This document shows, in pieces, positions 1 through 12,652 of a stretch of DNA of 64,000 nt. The notes beneath the pieces are model-generated. The model saw nothing but the letters and a program-made list of their open reading frames with translations, was not told the origin of the DNA and ran no database searches. The stretch comes from Gossypium raimondii. Its lineage: Eukaryota; Streptophyta; Magnoliopsida; Malvales; Malvaceae. Location of the stretch: NCBI RefSeq assembly GCF_025698545.1, contig NC_068571.1, forward strand, positions 47,773,733-47,837,732, read 5' to 3'. Made by a program: the position numbers and the translations under genes. Position 1 is the first letter of the stretch. Each line of letters begins with the position of its first letter.

Positions 1-1433
1 TTGACTTGAGCTCGATTGAATATCTATTTTCAAGCTTTGACAAATTAAGCTCGTTTCTTTATTTTTACACTTAAACTCAAACTTGAACTCAATTTGATAA
101 TTAAGTTAAGGGTTAATTGTAACAACCCGATAGTCACTGGTGTCGGAAAGTGTATTTTTGAGACTCCGTTATCGTAAATCAGATTCGTAAATATTTAATA
201 AAAATCTTTACGAAGCTAGTTGTGTAGTTAACTAGGTTTTGGTTAGGTGAATTTGCTTGAATTAAGAGTAATTAGGTAAAAAGACTAAATTGCATAAAGG
301 GTGAAAGTTGAATTATAGATTAAAGAAAATTAAAGGGACTAAATAAGCAATTATGCCAATAATCATAATTGAGGCATAATATTTTAAAACTTAAAAGTTA
401 AAATATATTATAATATTATATCTAAATTATTAAGTATATATATTACATTATATATTATAATAAGTAAATATAATAAATAAAAGAAACAAAAAGAAATAGA
501 AAGAAACAGGATACAAACGAAACAGGGAGAAAAAGAAAGAAAAGAAAAAGGGAAAGAAAGGAAGGAGAAATTAGGGTTTTAAAGTTCAAAGTTCAATTAG
601 TTAGTCAATTTAATCCCTTTTGCTTGTAATTTTTATGTTTTGGAATCTCGGTATTAAATATTACCTGACCCATGTCAAAATTTTAGAAATTATTGAGTTT
701 TTAAGCAATGTCTTTGTTGAATAATTTTAGTATTAGGGATTAAATTGATAGATTTTAAGTTAGAAATGAAAAAGGATTGAATTGTAGAATAAATTGTAAA
801 ATTTGAGTAATATGGACTAAATTGTGAAAGTTTTTAAATTTATGGATTTAAGTGAAATTAGGAATTAAATTTAGTTTAAAGTGGAATTTGTATGAAAATA
901 TAAGATTAATTGTAAAGAAATAAAGTTAGTCTCGGTTTAGGGACTAAATTGGAATTTAAGTAAACATTGAGTAAAAATTTAAAATATTAAATATGAGATT
1001 GAATTGTGTTGTATTGATGAATTTTAATTGTTTTAATTCCGTAGCTAACATCATATCGAAACCCTCGATTAAAAAGGGAAAAGATAAAGTCGACGAGGAA
1101 TAGTTCGGAATTTTCGGTTTGTATTTTTATAATCTGAAACTAGTTATTAATTGTAGTAAATTTTATTTAATGTATATGGTAAGTGTTGAGGTAAGTAAAT
1201 GATATTTTGATACTTGATTGAATGAATTGAATTAGTAGATATATATATTGAATGGATTGATTTTTGAATCGAAATGAATATATGAGTAATAATGTGATTA
1301 TATGAAAAATCAGCATTGGATATTGATTATATCTGAAATGTGAGATTAAACCTTATTAACTGTATCGGGTTGAGTCGGATATAGATGGCATGTCATAGGA
1401 TTGGAAGAGTTTAGGGGTTTCTTCGACTTTGAG

Positions 1434-2232
1434 TCGATGAGACACTGGGTGTCAAATTATTACCTCGAATTAGAGGTGCTCATGGGCTGGGCCGGGCTCA
1501 ACTAAAAATCCAGGCCCATTTACTAGGCCTGGGCCTAGAAAATGGGCCTAAAATTTTGTCCAAGCCCGACCCGGATAAAAATTCTAAAACTCGGCCCTGA
1601 CTCGGCCCGCTCGTATTAATTTTTATATTATTTTTATATAATTTTTAAATATATATAATACATCAAAAATACTAAAAATATCAAAATAAATATTTCCTAA
1701 CAAATTGAAAATAAATTTTAAAAAATATGTAGACTTAAATAACACTAAGATAAATACAACTTAACAAGCAAATGTCTCTAAAATAATAACAATATTAACA
1801 AAAGGGTTTAAAATAATAACAAAATTAATAATAAAATAAGTTTTATATAGTATCCAAATAATAACAATAAAATAGTAGCAACATAATTGTAAAATGGTAG
1901 CAAAATAGGGAGAAAACAACAAGAAAATAACATTAAAAAAATAGATTTTTTTGTCTTTTAGTGAATTCGGGCTGGGCCCTGGCCAAAAATACCTTACCTG
2001 AGGCCCGACCCATTTTTTAAACGGGCCTTATTTTGTCCAAGCCCATTTTTCGGGCCTATATTTTTGCCCAAACCCTCCCAAATTTCAGGTGGCCCGGCCA
2101 ATGATCAGGTATACTTCAGATATATTCGATGAGGCATTGAGTGCCAATTTACTTCGGTTTAGCCGGTGAGACACTAGGTGTCAAATTATTACTTCGAATT
2201 ATCCGATGAGGCATTGGATGCCAAACTAGTGT
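1434..2232. repeat. short tandem repeat inside LTR unit, split by a MITE
   Basis: A unit of roughly 36-40 bp with the core GATGAGRCAYTGRGTGYCAA followed by TTACTTCG occurs about four times (near 1435, 2127, 2166 and 2203). It is imperfect and alternates between GACACT and GGCATT versions. The array is interrupted by the MITE at 1471-2111, which landed inside one unit. It is internal LTR minisatellite sequence, not coding. Confidence 0.6.
1471..2111. mobile_element. GGGCC-rich MULE-like MITE, copy 1
   Basis: About 640 bp with GC-rich terminal arms rich in GGGCC/GGCCC (left end AGAGGTGCTCATGGG, right end ending CCAATGATCAGGTA) around an AT-rich core. Related copies lie at 36468, 49814, 52561, 52996 and 56261. 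Flanking 9-mers ACCTCGAAT and ACTTCAGAT agree at 6 of 9 positions, an eroded 9-bp target duplication. It has no reading frame and interrupts the LTR tandem repeat, so it is younger than the LTR unit. The Mutator-like assignment is inference from the 9-bp duplications across the family. Confidence 0.65.
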
Positions 2233-3329
2233 GTTTGGTTGGATCCGTGTATCCGTCTGAGACGTATTAATAGGGGTAATTAATTCAAATTGCATTATGA
2301 TTGATGTTAGATGATTGTATGTGAAATGAAAATGAGACAATGAATTGAAATATGGATTGAGACACATGAATTGTGTATTCATGAATTGGATATGGAATGA
2401 ACAAAATTTTTGTTTAAATGATATGTGTAATATATTGTGAAAAGCTATTTATATAGAAAATATGAGAATTGAGATATTGTGAAACAAATAAAATGTGATA
2501 TGGTTATTGAAATAATTAGATTGTATATTTCTGATTCCATTTTTTTTTATATTTCGATTATAGAAATACTACTGAGTTTTTACTCAACGTACAGTTTTGT
2601 TTTCCATGCGCAGGTTAGGTACTTAATTTTGATCGCTGATTCAGCATCCAACAATTTGTCCCGAACTCAAACGTGGTTATGTTTTTCTTTTTGTCGGCAT
2701 GTACCTAGGGTGTCTAAATATTAAGCATTTTCACTACACCAAAATAGGCTTTTAGCGGCGCTTTTTTAGGCCTTTAGCGGCGCTTTGATAAGCGCCAGAA
2801 AAAACGCCGCTAAAGAACGCGTCGCTAACTTTAGCGGCGTTTTTAGAAAAAAACGCCACTAAAGACCAAGACCTTTAGCGGCGCTTTTCCCACAAACACC
2901 GCTATAGACCAAGACCTTTAGCGGCGCTTTTCCCATAAAGGCCGCTAAAAACCATGACCTTTAAAAAAAATTATTTTAATCAAATAATATTTATTTTTAT
3001 GATAAATATTATATATTATGTTTTATTTTTAAATTTGAACTTTAAATATACTTTTAAGGATAAATAAAAAATATTATTTAAATTAAATTTTCTATGAAAA
3101 TTTTAACTTTAAAACTAAATATAAAAATTAATAAATTTAGTTTTAAAATTTAAAATAATAAATTAATAACACAATTAAAATCAAAAAGTTAGAACTCAAG
3201 TCGTCGTAAAAATTAAAGTAAAAATAAAAATTTAGAATCAAAACTAAAATAAATAATACATATGAGAAACAGACTAACTAGTTGAACCTGCCTATGACTA
3301 TACACATTGCAAGAGAATTGAGTTGAAGC

Positions 3330-3560
3330 TCTATCAGCAACATCTTTAGTTTCATTGGCGCTGCAGTTGGCACTCTTTTCCACCTCAAGATTGGAGGCAA
3401 AGTCTATGTCATCTAGGACTTTGGTGAAGAATCAGAAATTCCAGGGTCTGCACAAGGCTTTTGCACTTCTATTACAGTTGAAAAGTAAGGTATACCCTAT
3501 TTAGTATAGAGCAAAATGTAGGCTTCCTGAGACAGCACAGCTTTTTCTTCAACACAAGTA
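3330..3560 (-). pseudogene. captured ubiquitin carboxyl-terminal hydrolase fragment (UBP20/21-like), 3' part
   Basis: The reverse strand reads EEKAVLSQEAYILLYTK, a stop, then GIPYFSTVIEVQKPC and SDSSPKS. This matches my memory of the C-terminal end of the USP catalytic domain of plant UBP20/21-type deubiquitinases (the VLxQEAYILFY block). An in-frame TAG follows YTK and further stops follow SPKS, so it is not functional. It lies inside the CACTA element together with a second UBP piece at 4240-4356. The family is likely; the exact paralogue is uncertain. Confidence 0.6.
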
Positions 3561-3716
3561 ACCTACAAAAGATAGAACATGACCATTATGCACTATTATT
3601 CTAAGTACCATCAAAATGTTTACAATAAAAGTAACTATGGGTTTTGTTAAGAGAGAATATTAACATCCACTATCGTCTGGATTGAGGTAAAATACAATTA
3701 AAGGTGGAGATCTTAC

Positions 3717-3835
3717 ACTAAAATATGTGTTCCCAATTCTAAGATTTCTCCATCCATCTTCAGCATATGGTTCACCTCCAGATATGACAAGATTAGGCCG
3801 AAATCTCATCTGGTTGACGTTAGGTGGGGCACCAC
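3717..3835 (-). pseudogene. captured MOSC-domain exon (molybdenum cofactor sulfurase-like)
   Basis: The reverse strand reads CGAPPNVNQMRFRPNLVIS followed by GGEPYAEDGWRNLRIGNTYF. The FRPNxVxSGGEPYAEDGW signature is the MOSC domain of molybdenum cofactor sulfurase (ABA3/LOS5 in Arabidopsis). The reading frame runs into a GTAAG donor-like site at 3712-3716, so this is a single captured exon with its splice site. It is open throughout but isolated. It sits between the two UBP pieces in the CACTA element, which suggests separate capture events. Confidence 0.65.
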
Positions 3836-3915
3836 AAGAGAGTTTTTGAAGACCACAAAATTAGTATGTAGATGTAACGTATCACTTTAAAGGACGAAAA
3901 GAATTAATAAAAGCT

Positions 3916-4017
3916 GAAAGGAGAATGCAATAGCATGATGACTTGACCCAAAAGTTCGATTTAAGCGAAAGGAGAATGCAATAGCATGATGACTTGACCT
4001 AAAAGTTCGATTTAAAC
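3916..4017. repeat. 51-bp tandem duplication inside the CACTA element
   Basis: The block starting GAAAGGAGAATGCAATAGCA at 3916 repeats at 3967 with only a few mismatches, giving two adjacent 51-bp units between the MOSC and UBP pieces. It has no coding meaning that I can see. Confidence 0.75.
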
Positions 4018-4239
4018 TGAAAATTATCCCTTTGCTAATATAGAGATCAGTGCAATAATTTAAAATGTGATGAATGTGAAAGTTGAACTAAAGTATTATA
4101 ACATGATTAGAGGAAAATGAATACAATAAAAGTAACATAAATTACGACGAGCCACGATGAGTGTGCCTACTACATATGCGTATATTCATTTATATCTTTT
4201 GTGTGGTTGGGGGCTGGAGGATTGCGATGTTTGAATCAA

Positions 4240-4356
4240 TCTAATGAGCTGAAAAATGTTATACCATAAATTATTGAATGTAGCAAACATAGTGTCCGAA
4301 GTAGGTCTGAATCCGGAATGTTTCACAAGCGCAAATAGTTGATACCTCAGTTCCTC
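4240..4356 (-). pseudogene. captured ubiquitin carboxyl-terminal hydrolase fragment (UBP20/21-like), His-box exon
   Basis: The reverse strand reads EELRYQLFALVKHSGFRPTS in one frame and GHYVCYIQ in the next. Together these are the USP His-box region (YxLxAxVxHSG...GHYxCYI), which holds the catalytic histidine. A 1-base deletion between the two blocks breaks the frame, so the exon is a pseudogene. It lies upstream, in reading direction, of the UBP tail at 3330-3560, in the order expected for one parent gene. Confidence 0.65.
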
Positions 4357-4744
4357 CTATTGCAAAAGGATAACAAATGAAACAAGTTCAATAATCATGC
4401 ATTAAACATAAATTTTGTCTTGTCTAATATGCTCACAAAACCAATAATCATGAATTCAAAATCTTTTAGATTATTTGATAAATAAAATATTTTATCTTTC
4501 TTGCCAATAAAATAAAAAACAAGAATCAAATTAGTTCAACTCCAAGTCCTTAGTCAAATTTAATTAAACCTCAAGTTCTTTGTCAAAAGAAAAGAATATA
4601 TATAAAAAACCAAGAAAACACATACCTAGTTTGATTGGTGCCAACTTTTAAGCAGCTTCATGTAAATGTATAAGGCAAAGGTTGAAACTTGTAAGAATTT
4701 AAATCCCAAAAATGTAACTGGTCATACAGCAAGTTTACAACCTA

Positions 4745-5428
4745 TTCAAGTATTGCAAGAGCAGAACAAGCAGCCCCTTGTACCAGCTTGTTAGTATCCG
4801 ATATTCTTTGCAGGAAAGCCGTAAGAACCATGTCAAATTGCTCATAGCCTTTTTTATTACCACTATCCCGAATGGATGAAACATGAGAATTCTCAACATA
4901 AAATCCAATGCCAAAGAAACCGATAAAATAAGTTTATCGGCGGTATGTACCAAGAACAACAAATGATTGGTATATGATGCAAACACATAAACTATAGTCG
5001 GTCAAAGGGGTTATTAATCATTCATTACTAAATTAGAAAAAGGTATTGACAACCACACAGCATTTAAAGGGAGGCTAATTTTCATTCATACCTGAACAAT
5101 GTATTTGCTGAATTGAGAAAGTGTCCAACAAGAAGTACTCATTATGAGAGTAAACTTATGATCTAAAAGGGGAATTAGAGATGCCACAATCTGCACACAT
5201 AAACATATTTAACAACAATGATCAATTTAGGAGCATAACATGATTTAACAAAAACAGATGAATGTTTTATATGCATCATTCCATAATCTATCTCAAAAAC
5301 TAAACGAGTACTACCTCAGACAAACGAGGATAAAGACCATTGATGCAACCTCTAGCGATTACACCAAGAGCCAAAACAACAGCTTCCTTGTCCCTCCATG
5401 CTTCATCACCAGTAGCAGATAAGTTTGC
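4745..5428 (-). pseudogene. TRN1-like: captured transportin-1 (importin beta-2) gene fragment, three exons with introns
   Basis: Three exon-like blocks lie in collinear order on the reverse strand. Exon 5428-5315 (38 codons, AG acceptor and GT donor) contains [16 protein letters not shown] and [11 protein letters not shown]. Exon 5190-5092 (33 codons, with splice sites) contains [20 protein letters not shown]. The third, about 4866-4745, contains [20 protein letters not shown] and [13 protein letters not shown], then a stop. This order matches the HEAT-repeat region of plant transportin-1, the nuclear import receptor, as I remember it. Introns are kept, so capture was from DNA, not from mRNA. 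The piece is truncated on both sides and cannot make a full receptor. The longer open frame at 4735-4986 is a shadow in the wrong frame. Confidence 0.8.
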
Positions 5429-7369
5429 CTGCAAAAATCCGATGAGTCAACATATTTTAGCTAAGATGAACTCATAATGCAAAATACATATCAAACCAAC
5501 AACAAAACAGATACAATTTCCTTGATCCAAATTTGACATCGTAAATATATTAAAGAGAAAAATTCTCATGCATGAACTTAAGGCAAGCTAATATACATTT
5601 TGAGTAAGATGTCTCCTATTATCTATCCAACTTGCCAAACATTAGTTTGGCCTGTAATGAAATATTGTATTCATCAAAAGGAAAAATTATATACTACCTG
5701 CGGTTGAAGATCTGGAACAAATTTCAACTTAAATTTTAATATATTTTATTGTTGCACACTGTCTCCAAATAACTTTTAATTTACCCTGATTTAAAATAAT
5801 AAAAAAACTGAAAATATAAAACCTGCCTTTTACAAAAAACATCCCAAAAAGGAGTGGAGGCTTGGGTAATATATGCCTTCAACACCACAGCAGAGAACAA
5901 TAACCTTGTTAGGCAAAACTAGTTGACTGTTGTTTTTCGGGGGGAGTTTTGGGATAAAACCGAGTAAAATGAAATTATCTTTGCGGCTGCTATTGCTTAT
6001 CTAAAAACGCCGCAAAAAATTATTTCAGTTTGAACCAAATGATACCGTTTTACTATGCTAAAAAATTTTTATTTTGTTTTTTATAAATTGATTTATTTTT
6101 TGCGGCGTTTTTATGAAAACGCCACTAAATGTTTTGCTATATAAAATGGCTATTTTTAAAGTAAATTATTTTTTGTGGCTTTTTTTATAAAAACGCCGCT
6201 AAATGTTTTGCTATATGAAATGACGCTATTTGTTTAAAGTAAAATTATTTTACTATCAAATAATCTCTCACATATCAAATTTCTATTAAAGATTGAGGCG
6301 TTAATTATGATTTTATATTGTTCATTTCCGATCTAATCTCTATTTTATTAGAGATATTTCTTCCTAACTAAAATATAATTATTTTGCTAGATGTTCGATG
6401 TGGAATGATTTTAGTTTTAGTTTTTGTATTTTATTTTATTTGTTATAATTTGGTCCTATATATCTAAAATAGATAGTTAAATTAACCATATATATACCCT
6501 AAACCATGTATATTAAACCCTAAACTATAATGATAATTAAATTAAATATTTTAAAATTAATATTATCGCATCTTTTACAATTATATTTGAAATTATTTAA
6601 TATATAAATTAAAAATCAATCAATCATGTACACAAAATTTTTAAAATTATTTTAAATAATAGTATTTTAATTTCTTCATTTTTAACAAATATGTTTCTAT
6701 GTTTTTTATTTTAAATTATTTTACGTGTCATTATTTCAAATTTATCCATTTTTAACAAATATTCAATTAAAAATAAATTAAATAGTAAATAGCAGATAAA
6801 ATGTTTTTGCGGCGCTTTTTCAAAAACGCCGCTAAAGATCTGAGCATTAGCGGTGCTTTTTTTAAAAATGCCGCTAAAGATCTGAAAGGTACAAAACGAT
6901 GTCGTTGGGCTTAGACTTTTTGCAGCGTTTTTTGGAAAAACGCCGCTAATGCTAATTTTTAGCGGCGCTTTCCTAGAAACGCTGCTAATGCTCGATCTTT
7001 AGCAGCGTTTTACATAAAGAGCCGCTAATGCTCGATTTTTAGTGGCATTTTTTGTCCAAACGCCGCTAAAAGCCTGTTTTGGTGTAGTGTTTGTGGATTG
7101 TTTGTAAAGAAGATTATAAGTTAATATTGAATTGTTATATACATATAAATATGTGTTTATGTTTGAGGTCATATTATGACATAATTAAGTTAATGTTTAA
7201 ATGAACATGGAATAGGTAAAATAGATTGAATTTGGCATGTTTACAAATTAGATTTGATTGATGTTTCATTGATATGTTTTGAGGATATAATTGTGGTACT
7301 TATGAGGGTACATTGGTTAGACATCTAGGATGATTGTTTTGACTTGTTGTTAAAGGTACATATTGAGTC

Positions 7370-10278: not shown

Positions 10279-10381
10279 TTTTCACCTTTACCATTTTTCT
10301 CTTTTCTCTCCATTTCTTCACTCGTGTTGAAGCTCTAAATCCCTTGTGTTCCTTCACTCCATTGCCAGTTTGCCACTACTA

Positions 10382-12652
10382 ATGGCGACTTCCATAGCAG
10401 CTCGCATCTCCAGGAAGGCCGCGGCCTCTGCTTTCTCCGCTCACCGTCACGTAATCTCATCCCGTTGTTTCGCCACGGAGTCGGCGAAAACGATCTCGCC
10501 GTCGTCGGATCGAGTCAAGTGGGACTACAGGGGCCAAAGGAAGATAATCCCTCTCGGACAGTGGGTCCCTAAGGTCGCCGTCGACGCTTATGTGGCACCT
10601 AATGTCGTCTTGGCCGGTCAAGTAACCGTCTACGACGGAGCGTCGGTGTGGAGCGGCTGCGTCCTACGTGGCGATCTCAACAAGATCACCGTTGGATTCT
10701 GCTCTAATGTCCAGGAACGCTGCGTCATTCACGCCGCTTGGTCCTCACCTACCGGTAATCCTCTTTTCATTTCTTTTTCCTGATGTTTCTTTTAAATAAA
10801 ATTTAGGGTTTCTGAGTTTTTTTACTTGTTTATAATTAAAATTCTTGATTTCAGTTTTTTTTCTTTCGAATGAGCTAAAACGGTCAACGCTATAATTGAT
10901 TATTATGTTTGAATGTGTTCAATGCAGCTTAAAATTGTTACCCCGAATTTTATTTAGGGTTTCTGAGTACCTGTTTATAATCAAAATTTAGCTTGTAATT
11001 AGATTTGATTTTGGTGTTAATTTACTGTGGAATGAGCTAAATTAGTCGAAGCTTTAACTGATTGAGACTTGTGCATTATGTTCGAATGTGTTCAGTGCAG
11101 CTGAAAAGCTTCTTAGGAGCTCTTGATGTCCATTTAATACGAAACTGGCTAATTTATTCAATGAAGGAAACAATCTTTTAGTTTTTATTTTTATTTTATT
11201 TATGAGCCTCACAATTTAGATGCAAAACAATACGTATTTAGGTGTCATTTTGAGCTTTATATCCATAATTAGCTTCATTATTGTCACACTCTTATTCTGA
11301 GGTCTACATGCTGATCCATTGGATAATATCTTTAAGGATAATCTATTATCTTCGGCATTTGATTGTTAAAATACCCAGAACTCAAGGATCAAACATCATA
11401 TGAAAAGGGTAAAAAATCCGTCTTTAATGTAGCTCTCATAGTTGCTAAGAATGTAAATTTTGATGCCAAGTTGTAATCAGTATAAGCCATTAACACAGTT
11501 CTTTTGCCATGTTCCATTGTGCAGACTTAAGCTTACATGTTTTCACTCTGGGATACTTAAAACATGATCTTATATGTGCCCCCCAAAAAAGGAAATATTT
11601 GTCTTATGAACCCCTTAACCCCCAAAACAATCTTGTTTGATAAAATTTTCATTTCTATTGCCTCCTCTAGTAGATAGATAGAGGTCCAGGAGCTATCATA
11701 TCGTCTTTTGTTCACAATTTAGTGTCTATATATGTTACGCATAGCAGCTGTAGAAGTGAAGACATAGTGGTTTTTCTCTTTGATAATAGCTTTAGTGAGA
11801 TTATTCTCACCCACATTTTCCAAAGGGTGTTCTACTATAATAAGGTTTACGTGCTGATGATGAAAAGCCTGTTGCAAATTGCTCCTTGCTATTTCTATCA
11901 CATGTCTTTCTGAAAATGCCTCTTGTTTTTGGAACAATGAGTTCACTTGACTGTTAAGAACTGGTTCATTCTTGAGTCATGTTTATCGGTAGCTTCTCTT
12001 TTGTTATTATATTATAATGTGGCTCTTGGATCCTGCATGCCTATGCTTGACTGCAAGTAATACTTGTCGTGTGTAACTGGAGATATTTTCAATTGTTTAT
12101 GCTGTGAATGTATGATGTAAAAATGAATCACATATGCAATTGCTTTATTGAGAACTTTATTCTGTCCATGTGTCATTTCTATGATCTAGTCAATTTCTAT
12201 TCCTCATTCGCTTCATCATGTGAATACCATTTCTGAATTATGACTATTTAAATCGAAACATTTTCTATATTACAGGACTTCCAGCCGAGACATCAATCGA
12301 GAGGTTCGTGACAATTGGTGCATACAGTCTCTTGAGGTCATGCACAATTGAACCGGAGTGCATTATCGGACAGCATTCTATTCTCATGGAAGGTTCCTTG
12401 GTGGAAACACACTCAATCCTTGAAGCTGGTTCCGTAGTACCTCCAGGCAGGAGAATCCCAACCGGTGAACTTTGGGCAGGTAATCCAGCTAGGTTTGTTC
12501 GAGCTCTAACCCATGAAGAAACCTTAGAAATCCCTAAACTCGCGGTAGCAATCAATGACCTGAGCAAAGAACATTTCTCGGAGTTCCTTCCATACTCAAC
12601 AGTATATTTGGAAGTTGAGAAGCTCAAGAAGTCCCTGGGAATAAATATTTGA
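10382..12652 (+). CDS. GAMMACAL: gamma-carbonic anhydrase-like subunit of mitochondrial complex I
   Basis: Two exons, 10382-10754 and 12276-12652, with a GT...AG intron of 1521 bp in phase 1, encode 249 residues. The N-terminus (MATSIAARISRKAAASAFSA) is rich in R, A and S, as in a mitochondrial presequence. A conserved block RVKWDYRGQRKIIPLGQWVP starts at residue 44. The left-handed beta-helix hexapeptide repeats follow, ending with GELWAGNPARF. The sequence matches my memory of Arabidopsis gamma-CAL1/2, structural subunits of the matrix-facing gamma-CA domain of complex I. One metal-site histidine is kept (RCVIHAAW, H117). The IGHSAVLHGC block of active gamma-CAs reads IGAYSLLRSC, losing both other histidines, so zinc catalysis is unlikely; this is normal for the CAL group. 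I start at the ATG at 10382; the open frame runs back to 10346, but only through a GTG. The 3' end is tandemly duplicated. Confidence 0.95.

What the first reader, a model, noticed from the sequence alone, without database searches (positions are those of the whole stretch)
2732..7089. Pack-CACTA with exon fragments of three unrelated host genes
A CACTA element with perfect ends and TTT target duplications carries, all in antisense to its left-to-right reading, pieces of transportin-1 (three exons with introns), a UBP20/21-like deubiquitinase (two pieces) and a MOSC-domain exon resembling molybdenum cofactor sulfurase. The MOSC exon lies between the two UBP pieces. Retained introns show DNA-level capture. 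Such an element could produce small RNAs against, or chimeric transcripts of, three essential genes.
Basis: partly seen in the sequence, partly recalled or inferred. Interest (0 to 1): 0.8.

Follow-up and report, generated by a model that had tools for sequence, protein, structure and literature searches.

The report
Jumping gene carrying host-gene scraps
A plant "cut-and-paste" jumping gene has picked up pieces of at least four unrelated host genes, one inserted inside another; relatives elsewhere in the same genome show part of the order, but it looks like a decayed passenger of a known type, not a working new gene.

Summary
Confirmed. Window 2732-7089 is a complete non-autonomous CACTA element (32-nt inverted ends, TTT duplication, subterminal repeats). 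A full sibling with its own duplication lies on C13.
Eleven relatives carry both UBP pieces only 293-311 bp apart, so the "two UBP pieces" are one capture. The MOSC segment, found only in the two siblings and its donor, replaced that interval. Shared junctions indicate one transportin capture inherited by seven elements. The order of the MOSC and transportin captures is unresolved.
Junctions show 4-bp microhomology and a 28-nt filler with 15 nt identical to the MOSC donor (longest match in 779 control windows: 12), favouring template-switching repair, though hybrid-element origin is not excluded. Inferred splice sites and one frame are broken, so a chimeric protein is unlikely; small RNAs were not testable. 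A known kind (Pack-CACTA; soybean Tgm-Express1). Oddest point: related elements separately carry a piece of a second transportin-like gene.

The parts
2729..2731 (.). left target-site duplication TTT
2732..2763 (+). left terminal inverted repeat, CACTACACCAAAA...
2745..2951 (+). left subterminal repeats
   Evidence: families D1-D6
3280..3620 (-). UBP piece 1, similar to the UBP gene on C2 (25% diverged)
3621..3648 (.). 28-nt junction filler; first 15 nt identical to MOSC-donor sequence about 430 bp further on
3649..4270 (-). captured MOSC-gene segment (exon part plus introns; contains a tandem duplication with a 51-bp period)
3717..3842 (-). retained part of the MOSC exon; inferred 3' splice acceptor lost through an 8-bp deletion
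4273..4638 (-). UBP piece 2 (exon and intron)
4635..5442 (-). captured transportin-gene segment (97% to C3 gene)
4742..4867 (-). transportin exon c; inferred acceptor AG to GG and in-frame TAG at its end
5092..5190 (-). transportin exon b
5315..5428 (-). transportin exon a
5450..5542 (-). transportin intron remainder (about 196 bp of donor intron missing between 5442 and 5450)
5559..5849 (.). sequence of a dispersed repeat
5852..5934 (-). 83-bp exon piece of a PWWP/PHD-domain gene on C12 (99%)
6801..7070 (+). right subterminal repeats
7058..7089 (-). right terminal inverted repeat
7090..7092 (.). right target-site duplication TTT

Best explanation
A non-autonomous Pack-CACTA element built by several separate captures, now a decaying passenger moved by transposase made elsewhere. 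Shown: matching donor genes for four exonic pieces; a sibling at another site; a transportin piece shared with common junctions by related elements; a MOSC segment in place of the 293-311 bp that lie between the UBP pieces in relatives. Inferred: that the UBP capture is the oldest (from its divergence), and that later captures arose when a break or abortive post-excision gap inside the element was repaired by copying short stretches of unrelated chromosomal DNA with microhomology-guided template switches, after which transposition spread the product. No host function is required.
For: CACTA anatomy repeated in relatives: 10 of 11 elements with both ends in view have identical 3-bp duplications, L028 does not. 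Donor loci in the same genome. Near transportin junction TGATTGG/TGCC identical in W, L009, L011, L012 and L018 and crossed by the L013 match, with TTGG common to both sources; nine relatives without transportin read on into other sequence there. Far junction shared by W, L009 and L028. MOSC segment: 3 of 3 scored candidates are the two siblings and the donor. Filler: 15-nt match; control maximum 12 in 779 windows; 1 of 2000 mononucleotide shuffles reached 15. No similarity between W and L009 flanks (2 kb left; 2 kb of W against the 124 bp held on L009's right). Decay lesions shared by W and L009.
Against: The filler rests on one junction, and 13 of its 28 nt are unexplained. Elements also seem to exchange modules: L011/L012/L018 join the UBP2-transportin module to a 5' module found at many other loci, and L015/L017 are far from W in UBP piece 1 (34/337, 33/338) but near in piece 2 (9/364, 5/363); both fit hybrid-element formation. 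MOSC divergence from its donor (19-29 of about 565) is not lower than that of transportin (21 of 803), so 'MOSC last' is not shown. Sites where every copy differs from the transportin donor could also be changes in the donor. No transposase source was sought and no expression data were available.
Confidence: 0.65

Rival explanations
1. Hybrid-element formation: two related CACTA elements sit near each other, lose complementary ends, and the joint product moves with the chromosomal DNA between them (the mechanism proposed for Arabidopsis Pack-CACTA, as described in the review PMC13317346, passages).
For: L011, L012 and L018 combine a 5' module found at many other loci with the UBP2-transportin module; 917 + 907 end matches in the genome make neighbours likely; L017 is joint nearest to W after the sibling in UBP piece 2 (5/363) yet second farthest of 11 in piece 1 (33/338).
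Against: L016, L019 and L024 are close to W on both sides of the MOSC insert, and UBP piece 2 has too few differences to rank relatives; the donor-copied filler is more natural for template switching. Two near-identical parents would hide a switch.
Confidence: 0.3
2. The element gives antisense or chimeric RNA that regulates the donor genes, and is kept for that.
For: Stretches identical to donors: transportin up to 124 nt, MOSC up to 83 nt; the exonic pieces lie in one orientation.
Against: Only two copies carry MOSC; inferred splice sites and a frame are broken; 0 of 667 UBP 21-mers match the UBP gene; one shared orientation of four pieces has a chance of 1 in 8.
Confidence: 0.07
3. An ordinary gene or segmental duplication that happens to be flanked by CACTA-like repeats.
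For: Introns are retained.
Against: Ends, duplications, a sibling at another site and donors on four different contigs.
Confidence: 0.01

Closest known systems
Tgm-Express1, soybean CACTA in the wp allele (PMC1947982, passages read)
   Same: CACTA element of 5.7 kb with exonic and intronic pieces of five unrelated host genes
   Different: There the element sits in a gene intron and chimeric transcripts were shown; here there are no transcript data, splice sites are damaged, and relatives showing other states of the captures are present in the genome
Pack-CACTA / Pack-TYPE elements of Arabidopsis, rice and maize (PMC8903248 and PMC13317346, passages)
   Same: Non-autonomous TIR element with TSD carrying coding DNA, multicopy
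   Different: Different host; a nested, multi-donor cargo
Maize helitrons with stepwise capture (PMC3288121, abstract and outline)
   Same: Several gene fragments gained in successive steps, with internal losses
   Different: Different superfamily and transposition mechanism
Pack-TIRs formed by gap filling or FoSTeST in animals (PMC8277862, passages)
   Same: Microhomology and template switching at break points
   Different: Animals, not plants

Membership tests
CACTA superfamily | Terminal inverted repeats beginning CACTA/CACTG | tested here: met
   32-nt arms, CACTACACCAAAA
CACTA superfamily | 3-bp target-site duplication | tested here: met
   TTT/TTT; 10 of 11 family elements with both ends in view
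CACTA superfamily | Subterminal repeats | tested here: met
CACTA superfamily | Encodes, or is mobilised by, a CACTA transposase | not tested
   Longest stop-to-stop frame in the element is 95 aa; no transposase source was searched
Pack-CACTA (Pack-TYPE) | Carries fragments of host genes found elsewhere in the genome | tested here: met
   four donor loci
Pack-CACTA (Pack-TYPE) | Has moved as a unit | tested here: met
   sibling L009 with its own ATT duplication; no flank similarity found
Tgm-Express1-like exon shuffler | Chimeric transcripts containing the captured exons | not testable with these tools
   no RNA data; splice lesions argue against it
Abortive gap repair / template switching | Microhomology or templated filler at junctions | tested here: met
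   TTGG junction, 15-nt filler match
Hybrid-element origin of the MOSC capture | The two sides of the insert come from different elements | tested here: inconclusive
   three relatives near on both sides, L015 and L017 discordant

The most novel reading that the evidence does not exclude
Captured fragments may steer later captures. UBP-bearing elements of this family hold overlapping parts of two different transportin-like genes (C3 gene in the window branch; C1:43.76 Mb in L044/L047), both antisense. If the first capture gave the element homology that drew a second transportin gene in as a repair template, capture would be partly homology-guided, not random. The two inserts sit at different places in the elements, which speaks against simple replacement, and with hundreds of elements coincidence is possible; no null was computed.
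Probability: 0.07. Interest if true: 0.65.

Novelty: new member of a known kind. Interest (0 to 1): 0.4.

Why it matters
More than one mechanism is proposed for how TIR elements take up host DNA. A family that keeps relatives with and without each insert, siblings, donors and a filler scar in one genome lets the gap-repair and hybrid-element models be tested junction by junction. The element itself is probably a neutral passenger.

Tried and rejected
Considered and rejected: UBP as two separate captures (11 relatives hold both pieces 293-311 bp apart; three align through the interval). Chimeric protein (stop and splice losses). Affinity across the MOSC insert as proof of either capture model (inconclusive). 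Order 'transportin, then MOSC': not shown, because the five other transportin elements lack the UBP1 part. A capture from the gene on C5 whose upstream DNA matches 5719-5849: dropped, because that stretch also matches at other loci and looks like a dispersed repeat.

Led nowhere: Pfam on 9 frames of relatives L011, L013, L015, L017, L028 (nothing above a curated cut-off). The 2.7-kb 5' module of L011/L012/L018 matches many other loci (70 matches, 40 of 215 candidates scored); its donors were not resolved. Papers on cotton with such elements: searches (0 papers; 3; 6); judged by title and start of abstract only, none was about this element. That is not proof of absence from print.

Full report
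HOST. The window lies in an unnamed 751-Mb genome of 281 contigs (G000, C7:47773733-47837732). The matches seen fall on contigs C1-C13, all large; I infer a diploid cotton (Gossypium), from recall of chromosome number and size only.

ANATOMY. Element 2732-7089 has 32-nt inverted ends (94% complementary), subterminal repeats around TTTAGCGGCGCTTTT and TTT on both sides. An end pattern with up to two mismatches occurs 917 + 907 times in the genome, the control pattern 0 times, so the family is large. The longest stop-to-stop frame in the element is 95 aa, so I infer that it makes no transposase of its own.

DONORS. (1) Transportin: 4635-5442 and 5450-5542 match C3 (L010) at 97-98%; one L010 exon hits PDB transportin-1 at E 1.9e-9 and further frames look like transportin exons along the 10 kb (recognised from recall). 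The window pieces alone hit weakly (E 0.016 and 0.0017). (2) MOSC: 3649-4270 matches C1 (L014); the whole-genome search scored 3 of 3 candidates: window, sibling and donor. L014 frames hit MOSC above cut-off and MOSC_N just below it; the likeness to plant molybdenum-cofactor sulfurase in upstream frames is from recall (two of them had no Pfam hit). In the PDB the window frame hit the mARC MOSC protein at about 8e-5, below designed repeat proteins that I take as spurious. (3) UBP: the window frames gave no Pfam hit to a UBP; the C2 gene L041 has UCH hits and differs from the element copies by 25-28%, introns included. Among the 38 matches it is the only one I judge to be a gene (45% protein identity, open frame of 202 aa); not all the others were inspected, and a closer, lost donor is possible. 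The name UBP20/21 is recalled. (4) PWWP/PHD gene: 5852-5934 matches C12 (L043) at 98.8% over 83 bp and a place on C4 at 89%; L043 frames hit PWWP (1.6e-8) and PHD_2 (2.4e-10). Likeness to ATX-type histone methyltransferases is recalled. The stretch at about 5559-5849 matches several loci and looks like a dispersed repeat.

RELATIVES. One search gave 52 matches (40 of 137 candidates scored, so counts are lower bounds). Besides the window and C13, 22 places match UBP piece 1, wholly or in part, and 11 of them also have piece 2, wholly or in part, with 293-311 bp between; in the window 652 bp lie between. One search fetched 18 element loci and two donor loci. Nine of the 18 showed both ends; eight of these nine have perfect 3-bp duplications, L028 has ACG/AGG. 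With the window element and L044 that is 10 of 11. L009 on C13 is the full sibling: 96.8% over 2732-5934, same order of pieces; no flank similarity was found, though only 124 bp of its right flank were held. Window element and sibling differ by internal deletions on the 3' side.

HISTORY. UBP: L016, L017 and L024 align to the UBP gene through the interval missing from the window, so this was one capture, probably the oldest. Transportin: W, L009, L011, L012 and L018 share the junction TGATTGG/TGCC, where L015, L016, L017, L019, L020, L021, L022, L024 and L025 read on into common other sequence and L023 differs; the L013 match crosses the same junction and the L028 match crosses the far one. 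Ten sites differ from the donor in every element copy that covers them; this fits a single capture, but some could be changes in the donor. MOSC: only in W and L009. Differences: transportin W-donor 21/803; MOSC W-donor 29/564 and L009-donor 19/565, 15 shared; W-L009 15/801 and 22/617; some MOSC differences may be alignment artefacts near indels. So MOSC is not measurably younger than transportin, and the order of these two is open.

MECHANISM. Left MOSC junction: UBP sequence to 3620, then 28 nt, of which the first 15 are identical to donor sequence about 430 bp further on, then the MOSC segment. In 779 control windows of the same size the longest match was 12; 1 of 2000 mononucleotide shuffles of the donor reached 15 (the first version of this control used misplaced filler limits and included copies of the element itself). 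The transportin junction has 4-bp microhomology. This favours template-switching repair. Against an exclusive claim: L011, L012 and L018 share a 5' module with many other loci, at least two of which lie beside family ends (C1:15591950 and C2:32747967); and L015 and L017 are far from W in UBP piece 1 but near in piece 2. Exchange between elements therefore probably occurs, and a hybrid origin of the MOSC capture is not excluded.

DECAY. With exon limits inferred from the donor genes, W and L009 share AG to GG at the transportin exon c acceptor (also in L012), a TAG at the end of that exon (not in L011, L012, L013) and an 8-bp deletion removing the MOSC exon acceptor. The sites of exons a and b in W are kept.

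SECOND TRANSPORTIN CAPTURE. One search (17 of 17 candidates scored) gave seven element loci at 94-98% and, besides other gene-like places, diverged transportin matches at six loci that carried UBP1 without UBP2. I fetched two of the six. L044, with both ends and GTG duplications, carries a stretch 93.5% identical over 858 aligned positions to another transportin-like gene, C1:43.76 Mb (L045); L047 carries three tandem copies at 96-97% plus a 94% piece. L045 is similar to the C3 gene in several stretches in the same order; whether it is intact was not tested. So this family took pieces of two transportin-like genes, in overlapping parts and the same orientation, at different places in the element. 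No null was computed for this.

LITERATURE. Tgm-Express1 (PMC1947982, passages) is the direct precedent for a multi-gene CACTA; stepwise capture is known for helitrons (PMC3288121, abstract); gap filling with microhomology for animal Pack-TIRs (PMC8277862, passages); Pack-TYPE surveys (PMC8903248, passages), captured fragments in Chenopodium CACTA (PMC8978399, passages) and the review PMC13317346 (passages). The Arabidopsis Pack-CACTA paper was not held and is known to me only through that review.

VERDICT. Real, well delimited and largely explained; a new member of a known kind with an unusually readable history.

Noticed in passing
L044 (C10:54587500-54593500) element 496-5597; L047: Related UBP-bearing CACTA elements carry a fragment of a second transportin-like gene (C1:43.76 Mb); L047 has it in three tandem copies.
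   Followed up: partly
window 5852-5934: 83-bp exon piece of a PWWP/PHD gene on C12, a fourth captured host gene.
   Followed up: partly
window 5559-5849: Dispersed repeat inside the element; one match lies upstream of a gene with a weak MGDG-synthase hit on C5.
   Followed up: partly
window 3916-4015: Tandem duplication with a 51-bp period in the MOSC segment, also in L009, absent from the donor.
   Followed up: no
L015, L017: UBP piece 1 is about 10% different from the window copy while UBP piece 2 differs by 1-3%, hinting at exchange between elements.
   Followed up: no
L011, L012, L018: 2.7-kb 5' module shared with many other loci; part matches C5:55899262 at 94%.
   Followed up: no
window 10331-12652: Open frames resembling a gamma-carbonic-anhydrase-like gene (recalled likeness) about 3 kb from the element.
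   Followed up: no
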